The translations under genes were made by a program, and so were the position numbers. From Alphaproteobacteria bacterium (GTDB lineage: Bacteria > Pseudomonadota > Alphaproteobacteria > Rickettsiales > UBA8987): DNA of 64,000 nucleotides. Shown here in pieces: positions 49,080-50,614 of the stretch. A model generated the notes under the pieces. That model ran no database searches. It saw nothing but the letters and a program-made list of their open reading frames with translations, and was not told the origin of the DNA. The DNA is taken from assembly GCA_030429625.1 (NCBI GenBank), contig JAUIFA010000004.1:1-64000 (forward strand). Reading direction: 5' to 3'. Each line of letters starts with the position of its first letter. Positions within the stretch are counted from its first letter, which is position 1.

Positions 49080-49844
49080 TTAAGCAGCTAATTCTTCTTT
49101 GAAGTTATTTCTTTGACTCCATGGCACTGGTGTAATGTCATAATTTAATAAGGCGTCTTTAAAACTGTTAAGCACTTCTTTTTCATTGTCATTAACAAAA
49201 GCATAGGCTTTGGCATCGTCAGGGCGTGCCTCTCTAGTATCAAGCCAGCCGAATGCAATATCTTCAGCCTTGTTTTTAGTAGGATTATTGACAGTCTGAA
49301 TCATACGCTCAGGAGCGTATTTTGATTTGGGAATTACAAAATCAAATCGTCTATTATATCCAGAATGCCCCGTAAGTGAAAAGCCAGTTGAATATCTAAT
49401 ATCGCAGGTATCAAACCACATTTGAACATCTTCAAAAAACAAGTTAGCAATATTTGATTTTGCCAGATAGAACATATCGTTCACGGACAGAACCGCTTGT
49501 ATGAGGTTATGTTTATTTAAGGCAAAATTTTGCTCCGTGGTTTTTACAAAAAGCTGACTTCCATTTTTTTGAACTCCAAAACCATTGAGAGTCATTTCTA
49601 ATAATTTTTGACGTTTTGGACTGTCTAGTGAGCATCCAGATTGCTCAAGGTCGTCAATAGTATAACTATCATCAGTCAAAATGATATTTGAACCATCTTG
49701 TTTCAAATAAAGTTGTATGTAATCATTATGCCTGTCTAAGTAAGGAGTTGTGATTTCAATCCAATCTTTTAGTTGTTTCAATGCTGTTTTATCTTTCAAC
49801 CATTTGTAGTAGTTGTCTATTAATCTTTCTACATTTGAAGTCAT
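49080..49844 (-). CDS. DUF1828-DUF1829 domain protein
   Basis: 254 aa. Residues about 24-115 match DUF1828 (WIEITTPYLDRHNDYIQLYL, ILTDDSYTIDDLEQSG, SPKRQKLLEM), and about 145-240 match DUF1829 (FSLTGHSGYNRRFDFVIP, AYAFVNDNEKEV). The fold may be nuclease-like, but I see no clear catalytic motif. It overlaps the DUF6978 gene by four bases (ATGA), so the two act together. Candidate toxin-antitoxin or phage-defence effector by context only. Confidence 0.75.
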   Translation of the reverse strand: MTSNVERLIDNYYKWLKDKTALKQLKDWIEITTPYLDRHNDYIQLYLKQDGSNIILTDDSYTIDDLEQSGCSLDSPKRQKLLEMTLNGFGVQKNGSQLFVKTTEQNFALNKHNLIQAVLSVNDMFYLAKSNIANLFFEDVQMWFDTCDIRYSTGFSLTGHSGYNRRFDFVIPKSKYAPERMIQTVNNPTKNKAEDIAFGWLDTREARPDDAKAYAFVNDNEKEVLNSFKDALLNYDITPVPWSQRNNFKEELAA

Positions 49845-50302
49845 GAGAACAACCCCCTTCTAAAGTTTGGAGACTGTGTAATATTACAATACTTCATAAA
49901 ATCATTAAGTATTTTCCATGGGTCATTTAAATCTGATAGTAATCCCTTTGGAATATCGATGGCGTACTTTGAACCAAACCCTTCTTTATAAATATGCAAA
50001 TGAGGAACTCCCACCTCATTACCACCTAGCTCAGGTGGGTTACGGTGAGGGGCACCAAAATCAAGTCTAGCAAGAACTATCGCTTCTCTCGCTCGGTTTT
50101 GATATGTTTGTTTTTTTATATCAATTCGCCCTCGGCGTATATCGAGAATAAAATTTTCTTTTTTATCTGATGAAATTAAAGGCACAGAAATATAACCACC
50201 ACTACCAAAATCCGGCAAATCCCATTCGGTGTTATCAACTCTGACCTTTTCCATTGCGTGGAGAGTATCAGCTTCTTCTTGTGTTAAATTAATTTCAGCC
50301 AT
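49841..50302 (-). CDS. DUF6978-family protein
   Basis: 153 aa from the ATG at 50302; a GTG at 50311 is an alternative. Helical N-terminus (NLTQEEADTLHAMEK), then a beta-rich body with FILDIRRGRIDIKKQTYQNRAREAIVLARLDFG in two parts, APHRNPPE and HLHIYKEGFGSKYAIDIP. This matches what I recall as DUF6978, a partner of DUF1828 proteins. First gene of a two-gene operon. The role is unknown. Confidence 0.65.
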   Translation of the reverse strand: MAEINLTQEEADTLHAMEKVRVDNTEWDLPDFGSGGYISVPLISSDKKENFILDIRRGRIDIKKQTYQNRAREAIVLARLDFGAPHRNPPELGGNEVGVPHLHIYKEGFGSKYAIDIPKGLLSDLNDPWKILNDFMKYCNITQSPNFRRGLFS

Positions 50303-50342
50303 CTCATTCACTACATAGTTATAGTATAAAGATAGCTAATTT

Positions 50343-50356
50343 TTGCTTTGAAGCAA
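50343..50356. promoter_or_regulatory. Palindromic candidate operator of the DUF6978-DUF1828 operon
   Basis: TTGCTT-TG-AAGCAA, a perfect 14-bp palindrome 40 bases before the DUF6978 ATG. A TATACT-like -10 lies between it and the start on the minus strand. The placement suits autoregulation. Confidence 0.45.
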
Positions 50357-50538: not shown

Positions 50539-50614
50539 TGGTGGAGGATAGCGGGATCGAACCGCTGACCTCCTGCGTGCAAAGCAGGCGCTCTCCCAGC
50601 TGAGCTAATCCCCC
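50539..50614 (-). tRNA. tRNA-Ala (TGC anticodon)
   Basis: On the minus strand: acceptor GGGGGAT/ATCCTCC, D-arm AGCTCAGCTGGGAGAGC, anticodon loop TTTGCAC (anticodon TGC), T-arm with GGTTCGATCC, discriminator A and encoded CCA. It reads GCA, GCG and GCT codons. It borders the accessory patch. Confidence 0.95.

What the first reader, a model, noticed from the sequence alone, without database searches (positions are those of the whole stretch)
49841..50356. DUF6978 / DUF1828-DUF1829 two-gene module with a palindromic operator: candidate uncharacterised toxin-antitoxin or defence system
Two unknown-function families are translationally coupled (ATGA), stand alone in an accessory patch next to tRNA-Ala, and have a perfect palindrome (TTGCTT-TG-AAGCAA, 50343-50356) in the promoter region. 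Coupling, small size, patchy location and likely autoregulation fit a TA or anti-phage pair. I know of no assigned function for either family.
Basis: partly seen in the sequence, partly recalled or inferred. Interest (0 to 1): 0.65.

Follow-up and report, generated by a model that had tools for sequence, protein, structure and literature searches.

The report
Probable TumE-like toxin–antitoxin defence pair
Two overlapping bacterial genes of unnamed function look like a mobile self-poisoning switch against viruses: a small predicted protein-synthesis toxin and a larger partner that probably holds it in check, often carried beside DNA-restriction genes or in dormant phages.

Summary
The pair is real: DUF6978 (A, 49841-50302, minus) overlaps DUF1828-DUF1829 (B, 49080-49844, minus) by ATGA. 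The palindrome exists but is at chance level. PADLOC-DB already lists both proteins as phage-defence candidate PDC-M24, without a function. I add:
(1) A is a distant TumE-superfamily toxin: a Haloarcula relative passes both Pfam cut-offs, profile-profile P is 8e-6, controls fail, and an R-x-D…H-x-N…H-x-H motif is near-invariant in 105 homologues.
(2) B has a chaperone-like N-domain and a PD-(D/E)XK-fold C-domain without the catalytic lysine.
(3) All 12 above-cut-off A hits in 581 genomes lie beside B (once a broken B).
(4) The pair spans many phyla, beside type I restriction genes (52 of 80 loci; matched test 19 of 27 against 0 of 27) or near phage integrases.
(5) Nine loci have A missing or broken with B intact; I saw no reverse.
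Best reading: a horizontally spread toxin-antitoxin type anti-phage pair, A toxin, B antitoxin or sensor. Toxicity and phage protection could not be tested. In the window the pair stands alone beside tRNA-Ala; the genome's type I genes found are on another contig.

The parts
49841..50302 (-). Gene A: DUF6978 protein (153 aa from ATG 50302; GTG 50311 possible), predicted TumE-superfamily toxin
   Evidence: Pfam PF22398 E 2.9e-38; PADLOC PDC-M24A E 2.4e-50; TumE link of the family; AlphaFold2 mean pLDDT 90.8
49988..50068 (-). Predicted active-site core of A: R79-x-D81 ... H86-x-N88-P89 ... H101-x-H103-x-Y105
   Evidence: R79 104/105, D81 98/105, H86 104/105, N88 105/105, H101 and H103 102/105 of 105 aligned DUF6978 ORFs; same core aligned to TumE by hhalign
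49080..49844 (-). Gene B: DUF1828-DUF1829 protein (254 aa), predicted antitoxin/sensor
   Evidence: Pfam; PADLOC PDC-M24B E 5.1e-105; AlphaFold2 mean pLDDT 90.5, pTM 0.52
49482..49748 (-). DUF1828 part of B, within a domain (residues about 12-130) that resembles class I type III secretion chaperones
   Evidence: Pfam residues 33-121; VIA-align YscB 1xkp_C Z 8.9, 3.2 A, 101 aligned; SpcU 4akx Z 8.2, 3.7 A, 100 aligned
49110..49370 (-). DUF1829 part of B, within a PD-(D/E)XK-fold domain (residues about 132-254) without the motif lysine
   Evidence: Pfam residues 159-245; VIA-align 1y88 Z 11.7, 3.1 A, 111 aligned; Can2 7bdv Z 11.2, 2.8 A, 116 aligned; residue counts
49841..49844 (-). ATGA: stop of A overlaps start of B
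   Evidence: sequence; the same 4-nt overlap in 69 of 92 related loci
50343..50356 (.). 14-nt perfect palindrome; present, not above chance
50539..50614 (-). tRNA-Ala(TGC), flanking landmark; the pair lies on its 3' side
   Evidence: no duplicated tRNA 3' end found in the stretch 30001-50538

Best explanation
The pair is a horizontally spread toxin-antitoxin type anti-phage module. A (DUF6978) is a toxin of the TumE superfamily and most likely blocks translation, probably as an RNase acting through its conserved R/D/H/N/H/H core. B (DUF1828-DUF1829) is a two-domain antitoxin and likely sensor: its chaperone-like N-domain would bind and silence A, and its PD-(D/E)XK-fold C-domain, probably no longer a nuclease, would recognise nucleic acid or the trigger. 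When infection disturbs B, or a linked type I restriction system, A is freed and stops protein synthesis, so that the phage yield drops. Shown by computation: pairing, overlap, spread and contexts, the TumE link, the predicted folds, and loci with A lost but B kept. Inferred: toxicity, neutralisation, trigger and phage protection.
For: Pairing: of loci found through B, 75 of 80 genome loci and 5 of 12 viral loci have an A-type stretch within 60 nt of B, 69 of the 92 with a 4-nt overlap. Found A-first, all 12 above-cut-off hits (6 of 385 genomes of the window's class, 6 of 196 of an archaeal phylum) have B adjacent, in one case a broken B; two of the 12 genomes (the window's own and G765) were known beforehand to hold the pair. 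Three second-copy A hits (two above cut-off, one below) in genomes already known also have B beside them. TumE link: TumE E 0.0028 for a Halorubrum virus A; a Haloarcula A passes both Pfam cut-offs (DUF6978 64.0 bits against 29.6, TumE 24.4 against 23.4); broad profiles hhalign P 8.2e-6, probability 83.6; 20 column-shuffled TumE profiles reach at most 2.5, reversed 0.3; with a broad TumE HMM the best non-TumE hit among 15,762 ORFs is a DUF6978, E 0.052. TumE blocks translation and is neutralised by its partner (PMC10584680, passages). Direction: A missing or broken with B intact in L036, L072, L086, L099, L111, L116, L121, L015 and L033. Defence context: type I restriction genes in 52 of 80 loci; matched subset 19 of 27 against 0 of 27 control regions, Fisher P 2.4e-8; near the integrase in 9 of 10 phage records fetched; PDC-M24. 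Precedents, passages read: DUF1829-bearing partner of a HipA kinase in DS-6/HipAD (PMC13092281); toxic effect of deleting the DUF3037 partner of HipA in PDC-M66 (PMC12548924); DarTG2 between hsdS and hsdR (PMC12255303).
Against: I found no toxicity, neutralisation or phage data for any member. The window protein itself shows no TumE match in Pfam; only 1 of 11 A proteins matched TumE, three of five archaeal A proteins did. The link rests largely on archaeal members: with bacterial and phage DUF6978 only, the hhalign probability falls to 23.0, P 9e-4, and narrow profiles gave nothing firm. AlphaFold2 of A has no firm PDB match, and no TumE model was available to compare. The bias towards lost A is partly built in, because most loci were found through B; some breaks may be assembly errors, and the short A remnants in L072, L099 and L111 were recognised by eye. 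B is large for an antitoxin (recalled), and A comes first, whereas TumE mostly comes second. In the window no other recognised defence gene was seen next to the pair.
Confidence: 0.66

Rival explanations
1. PrrC-like guard of type I restriction: the same toxin, but its main control is the linked HsdMSR complex, so that a phage anti-restriction protein releases A. Lone copies, as in the window, would be watched over in trans or be stranded.
For: Type I components in 52 of 80 loci; HsdS ends within -30 to +100 nt of A in 16; HsdR lies downstream on the same strand in 39. PrrC is silenced by a linked type I enzyme and set free by a phage anti-restriction peptide (PMC2610378, passages). The window's genome has HsdS- and HsdR-type genes, on contig C5.
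Against: 28 of 80 loci show no type I component in the DNA held (some contigs are short; of 45 loci with at least 4 kb on both sides, 14 show none), and none of the 12 viral loci does. The hsdS-hsdR gap also holds unrelated modules and is called a possible recombination hotspot (PMC12255303, passages), so embedding need not mean control.
Confidence: 0.28
2. B is the effector: a PD-(D/E)XK nuclease that cuts phage nucleic acid, with A as its regulator or antitoxin.
For: The C-domain has a clear PD-(D/E)XK fold (1y88 Z 11.7, 3.1 A, 111 aligned; Can2 Z 11.2, 2.8 A, 116 aligned), close to effectors such as Can2 and Card1; D168 is kept in 55 of 57 and E179 in 57 of 57 close relatives.
Against: The usual motif lysine is absent; in the broad set of 16, D168 is N in 3 and E179 is E in only 9. 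B is intact where A is missing or broken in nine loci, which a free nuclease toxin should not be. Pfam finds only DUF1828, not DUF1829, in two archaeal B proteins.
Confidence: 0.13
3. Superinfection exclusion or phage-phage competition gene pair of temperate phages that bacteria have picked up, without toxin-antitoxin logic.
For: In 9 of 10 fetched phage records at most two genes lie between the pair and the integrase, and mostly a repressor-type gene is on the other side; Lj965 has a gene annotated 'superinfection exclusion' two genes downstream of B.
Against: In genome contigs 52 of 80 copies lie near type I restriction genes; the TumE link points to a toxin. The two ideas can both hold.
Confidence: 0.1
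4. Selfish addiction module of mobile elements with no phage role.
For: Found on a conjugative and a mobilizable plasmid, phages and a satellite; toxin-antitoxin anatomy.
Against: Association with type I restriction genes, and few plasmid matches: with the window proteins as queries, 2 of 72,556 plasmid records match A and 9 match B at E 1e-5.
Confidence: 0.12

Closest known systems
PADLOC phage-defence candidate PDC-M24 (PDC-M24A + PDC-M24B)
   Same: Both window proteins match the two components over nearly full length (A E 2.4e-50, B E 5.1e-105).
   Different: Only a bioinformatic candidate: the library gives no function. The toxin assignment, fold of B and loss pattern are added here. Embedding is how PDC systems are said to have been found ('guilt-by-embedding', PMC10855318, passages), but I saw no text on M24 itself.
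TumE-TumA toxin-antitoxin systems (PF20126, formerly DUF6516)
   Same: The A family shares the R-x-D…H…H-x-H core and profile similarity with TumE; two-gene arrangement; no firm PDB fold match for A, as reported for TumE (PMC10584680, passages).
   Different: A is longer (about 150 aa), falls in a different Pfam family, comes before its partner, where TumE mostly comes after it, and its partner is a 254-aa two-domain protein; one TumE partner group is RelB-like.
HipAD / DS-6 / PDC-M66
   Same: Two-gene defence system whose non-toxin partner DS-6B is reported to carry DUF1829 (PMC13092281, passages); in PDC-M66 HipA is required for defence and loss of the DUF3037 partner is toxic (PMC12548924, passages).
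   Different: Toxin there is a HipA kinase; the partner has DUF3037.
DarTG2 inside type I restriction (RptR island of EPEC)
   Same: Toxin-antitoxin pair lying between hsdS and hsdR (PMC12255303, passages).
   Different: Unrelated proteins; DarT is a DNA ADP-ribosyltransferase.
PrrC / EcoprrI anticodon nuclease
   Same: Translation-blocking RNase tied to a type I restriction operon (PMC2610378, passages).
   Different: PrrC is a single protein with ABC-ATPase motifs; the window pair has its own partner protein and no linked restriction genes.

Membership tests
PDC-M24 (PADLOC-DB v2.0.0) | Both components M24A and M24B matched, adjacent | tested here: met
   PDLC04538 E 2.4e-50 and PDLC04539 E 5.1e-105; genes overlap by 4 nt
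TumE (PF20126) | Window protein passes the curated Pfam cut-off | tested here: not met
   no TumE match listed up to E 1 for the window protein
TumE superfamily (remote) | Bridging sequence or significant profile-profile match | tested here: met
   Haloarcula A passes both Pfam cut-offs; hhalign P 8.2e-6, controls fail; weaker without archaeal rows (probability 23.0)
TumE superfamily (remote) | Same three-dimensional fold | tested here: inconclusive
   A is predicted as helix, run of strands, helix; no TumE model at hand; no firm PDB match
TumE superfamily (remote) | Toxic on expression, inhibits translation, neutralised by partner | not testable with these tools
   needs bench work
Toxin-antitoxin system | Two small genes with tight linkage | tested here: met
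   12 of 12 A-first hits have B adjacent, one of them broken; 4-nt overlap in 69 of 92 loci
Toxin-antitoxin system | Antitoxin may be kept without toxin, toxin not without antitoxin | tested here: inconclusive
   nine loci with A missing or broken and B intact, none seen reversed, but most loci were chosen through B
Toxin-antitoxin system | Autoregulation through an operator | tested here: inconclusive
   palindrome at chance level and not found in L036; no binding data
HipAD / PDC-M66 | HipA-type kinase partner | tested here: not met
   partner is DUF6978
PrrC-type restriction-linked guard | Gene inside a type I restriction operon | tested here: not met
   for the window copy: the genome's HsdS- and HsdR-type matches lie on contig C5, the window on C10; 52 of 80 relatives do have type I genes nearby
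PD-(D/E)XK nuclease (B C-domain) | Core fold | tested here: met
   predicted model: 1y88 Z 11.7, 3.1 A, 111 aligned; Can2 Z 11.2, 2.8 A, 116 aligned
PD-(D/E)XK nuclease (B C-domain) | Catalytic D…(D/E)xK residues kept | tested here: not met
   no conserved lysine two positions after E179 or Q183; D168 and E179 vary in the broad set of 16
Class I type III secretion chaperone fold (B N-domain) | Fold match | tested here: inconclusive
   Z 7.4-8.9 to YscB, SpcU, InvB, CesT, SicP (rmsd 3.2-3.8 A, 100-102 aligned), in a range that can arise by common arrangement

The most novel reading that the evidence does not exclude
DUF6978/DUF1828-DUF1829 is a new class of TumE-superfamily toxin systems with a chaperone-fold plus dead-nuclease-fold antitoxin. 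It moves between type I restriction operons, where it acts as a second line that fires when a phage disarms the restriction enzyme, and temperate phages, where it guards the lysogen. Some phages may answer with a DUF1828-only decoy antitoxin.
Probability: 0.25. Interest if true: 0.75.

Novelty: new variant of a known kind. Interest (0 to 1): 0.52.

Why it matters
It would give a first mechanism to a phage-defence candidate catalogued without function. It would join an unknown protein family to the TumE translation toxins. It would also offer a clean test of whether toxin pairs lodged in type I restriction operons guard the restriction enzyme or merely ride along.

Tried and rejected
Palindromic operator: present but at chance level, not found in L036; rejected as evidence. 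Duplicated tRNA 3' end (attachment site) in the stretch 30001-50538: none found with up to 2 mismatches. Direct TumE tests with narrow profiles: hhalign probability 0.5 and 1.8, and no DUF6978 among the 25 best non-TumE hits of a narrow TumE HMM, although A ORFs scored higher on average than other ORFs; only wider profiles with archaeal members resolved it. PDB fold searches with A gave nothing firm (no match at E 0.001; best VIA-align Z 5.0, 4.1 A, 90 aligned); the viral library gave one match at E 5.4e-4 to an uncharacterised 154-aa phage protein, not followed up. NCBIfam gave no match for either protein. I first read the single 403-aa ORF of G346 (L033) as an A-B fusion; by eye its A part is decayed (start lost, second H of H-x-H changed, frame changed), so I count it as broken A. 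DUF1828-only phage proteins as decoy antitoxins: kept only as a side note, because amino-acid identity between copies is below nucleotide identity in all six pairs, as under weak constraint. Literature: full-text searches for DUF6978, DUF1828, DUF1829, PF08861, PF08862 and PDC-M24 returned four papers. I saw passages of three, of which only PMC13092281 bears on function (DUF1829 in DS-6B); the fourth, PMC7970244, I saw in the listing only. A search for TumE, DUF6516, PF20126 and PF22398 returned 1,186 papers, mostly unrelated words; of the 15 listed only PMC10584680 is about this toxin. bioRxiv is not held, so the 'guilt-by-embedding' preprint itself was not seen. Other searched listings were read as listings, with passages of the papers named in the report; passages of PMC11514479 were also seen and name no PDC-M24.

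Rows dropped or limits before counts: the genome scan confirmed 133 relatives of B and kept the best 80. L041 and L056 have little room upstream of B (contig ends) but count among the 80. For the neighbour scans the 4 nearest called genes of each of 27 loci were used (108 proteins; the 27 were chosen for long contigs out of 80); two larger alignments, from which I had left out 2 of 134 and 3 of 135 proteins, were not scanned because the focal one exceeded the residue limit. 15 of 27 phage and plasmid records that match B were fetched; some of the 27 are duplicate records. HsdS/M/R detection used seeds taken from these same loci, so it may miss divergent systems; the unseeded Pfam and PADLOC scans agree in direction. 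Control regions did hold other defence matches, one protein each for Gabija GajA and GajB, a type II methylase and others.
Full report
WHAT IS THERE. The window carries two minus-strand genes. A (49841-50302, or from GTG 50311) is a DUF6978 protein and B (49080-49844) is a DUF1828-DUF1829 protein. They overlap by ATGA. The pair lies on the 3' side of tRNA-Ala(TGC), in a stretch of 35.8% GC inside a window of 44.3%. The next gene beyond the tRNA is trcR. Of 12 trcR loci scanned, the window's included, four have tRNA-Ala beside trcR. In the three relatives among these four, none of the window genes tested on the far side of the pair was found in the DNA fetched, nor A or B, so this junction is variable. 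DUF6978 was found in 1 of 88 related genomes, the window's own. DUF1829 has one match in the genome. This is an accessory gene pair, not a core one.

THE PALINDROME. TTGCTT-TG-AAGCAA at 50343-50356 is real. The 64-kb window holds 19 repeats with the same arm and spacer length, and 169 with 6-nt arms and spacers of 0-8 nt. It was not found in the locus of the nearest relative (L036, 72% identical in B). In 11 relatives A overlaps the end of hsdS by 1 or 4 nt, where no separate operator would fit. I give the palindrome no weight.

CATALOGUE STATUS. PADLOC-DB v2.0.0 names the two proteins PDC-M24A and PDC-M24B. PDC stands for phage defence candidate, found by 'guilt-by-embedding' (passages of PMC10855318; [quoted passage not shown] Searches of the held library for the family names and for PDC-M24 returned four papers; the three I opened at passages give this pair no function, one I saw only as a listing. 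PHROGs has the matching families as unknown function, apart from a weak hit of B to a portal-protein family, E 0.017.

SPREAD AND PAIRING. A scan of the species-genome collection confirmed 133 relatives of B and kept the best 80, at 51-72% identity, with record titles from Alpha-, Beta- and Gammaproteobacteria, Planctomycetota, Nitrospira relatives, Chloroflexi, Spirochaetes, Chlorobia, Omnitrophota, Elusimicrobia, Myxococcota and the archaeon Methanoregula, among others. Such even identity across phyla suggests horizontal transfer. A viral scan gave 12 more loci. An A-type stretch lies within 60 nt of B in 75 of the 80 and 5 of the 12; two of the five misses among the 80 are at contig ends. 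69 of the 92 have the 4-nt overlap. Searching for A first, 6 of 385 genomes of the window's class (Alphaproteobacteria by inference; a seventh match is below the cut-off and has no B) pass the cut-off, and 6 of 196 genomes of an archaeal phylum. All 12 have B beside A. Two of the 12, the window's own genome and G765, were known beforehand to hold the pair. Ten look intact in both genes, one has a decayed A (G346, L033) and one has both broken (L034). Three further A hits in genomes already known (G748, G752, and a below-cut-off hit in G760) also have B beside them.

CONTEXT. Fifteen annotated regions were fetched out of 27 phage and plasmid records that match B. In 9 of 10 phage records at most two genes separate the pair from the integrase, mostly with a repressor-type gene on the other side; one is a 10.9-kb satellite. 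A long A ORF, annotated or not, precedes B in 14 of the 15; the fifteenth (L015) keeps only an A remnant. In genome contigs the striking context is type I restriction: an HsdS, HsdM or HsdR homologue occurs in 52 of 80 loci, all three in 29; HsdS ends within -30 to +100 nt of A in 16; HsdR lies downstream on the same strand in 39; of 45 loci with at least 4 kb on both sides 31 have a component. In a matched test on 27 loci with long contigs, 19 have such genes against 0 of 27 regions taken elsewhere on the same contigs (Fisher P 2.4e-8). Unseeded scans agree: Pfam Methylase_S in 14 of 108 neighbour proteins and HSDR_N in 8; neither appears among the 25 top families listed (of 125) for the 108 control proteins, nor do type I models among the 25 listed (of 167) PADLOC families of the controls, which do include single Gabija and type II methylase matches. 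A relative of an Abi_C protein occurs in 7 of 80 loci, in the four seed loci between B and hsdR. The window copy has no such neighbours; the genome's HsdS- and HsdR-type matches are on contig C5.

A IS A DISTANT TumE. A Halorubrum virus A first matched TumE at E 0.0028; it was the only one of 11 A proteins of that set. An archaeal set then gave a bridging sequence: a Haloarcula A scores 64.0 bits for DUF6978 (cut-off 29.6) and 24.4 for TumE (cut-off 23.4) over overlapping residues; two more of the five archaeal A proteins scanned reach TumE E 3.6e-4 and 3.5e-3, two show none. With 105 A and 40 TumE sequences hhalign gives probability 83.6 and P 8.2e-6 over the core R-x-D…PH…PH-x-H. Archaeal A alone (9) reach 89.4, bacterial and phage A alone (96) 23.0; shuffled, reversed and unrelated profiles reach at most 2.5. 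In 105 aligned A sequences K19, R79, D81, H86, N88, H101 and H103 are kept in 98-105, and the window protein has all of them. TumE stops translation and is silenced by its partner, an RNase activity being proposed but not shown (PMC10584680, passages read). AlphaFold2 of A (mean pLDDT 90.8) has no firm PDB match, which is also what that paper reports for TumE.

B LOOKS LIKE A TWO-DOMAIN ANTITOXIN. The model (mean pLDDT 90.5, pTM 0.52, so domain placement is uncertain) has an N-domain that resembles class I type III secretion chaperones and a C-domain with the PD-(D/E)XK fold. In the N-domain D58 and L66 are invariant in both sets (57 and 16 sequences), and T62 in the broad set of 16 (T, I or V in the 57). 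In the C-domain the motif lysine is absent, and in the broad set D168 is D in 13 of 16 and E179 is E in 9 of 16, so a live nuclease is unlikely. Pfam sees only DUF1828 in two archaeal B proteins, so the N-domain seems the more constant part. Published precedents for such a partner of a toxin are DS-6/HipAD, with DUF1829 (PMC13092281, passages), and PDC-M66, where removal of the DUF3037 partner is toxic (PMC12548924, passages).

WHICH ONE IS THE TOXIN. Nine loci have A missing or broken next to an intact B: L036, L072, L086, L099, L111, L116, L121, L015 and L033. In L086 and L116 the loss takes out the predicted active-site core; in L072, L099 and L111 only a short A tail is left, recognised by eye. 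I saw no intact A with a broken B. Most loci were found through B, so this is only suggestive, but it agrees with A as toxin.

MECHANISM. I propose that B binds and silences A, and that infection removes this block, either by loss of unstable B, by a trigger sensed by B, or, for copies inside type I operons, by disturbance of the restriction complex as for PrrC (PMC2610378, passages). A then blocks translation. The pairing, TumE kinship, folds and contexts are computed; toxicity, neutralisation, trigger and protection are inferred. DarTG2 between hsdS and hsdR (PMC12255303, passages) shows both that such placements occur for real defence pairs and that the site collects unrelated modules.

VERDICT. 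The window copy is an ordinary-looking lone member of a catalogued candidate family; the TumE link, the antitoxin anatomy and the restriction context make the family testable.

Noticed in passing
L123:4993-5388, L124:2976-3371, L125:5998-6393, L126:5995-6375 (also L122 and L127): Viral contigs carry DUF1828-only proteins of about 125-131 aa, 55-60% identical to the N-domain of B (L127 32%), without a DUF6978 match nearby; in L125 next to a gene that by eye looks like a VRR-NUC nuclease. They could be decoy antitoxins or remnants; among L123-L126 amino-acid identity (0.90-0.99) is below nucleotide identity (0.95-0.995) in all six pairs.
   Followed up: partly
L055:6713-7510, L082:6713-7528, L085:6713-7528, L093:6717-7508: A gene with an Abi_C domain (L055: E 6.1e-13) sits between B and hsdR in four type I operons (7 of 80 loci have a relative), so some operons stack two extra candidate modules.
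   Followed up: partly
G000:C5:277141-282888: The window's genome has HsdR- and HsdS-type genes on another contig; the only DUF6978 match of the genome is the window's.
   Followed up: partly
196 genomes of the archaeal phylum of G765: TumE itself is common there: 50 of 196 genomes match at E 0.001, many with several copies.
   Followed up: no
L014:4555-5001 (AP018516.1) and L017:3518-3970: On an Acetobacter orientalis plasmid the A gene is annotated as two short 'prophage protein' fragments on opposite strands, although one long ORF is open; a Staphylococcus delphini element also has a shortened A annotation.
   Followed up: yes
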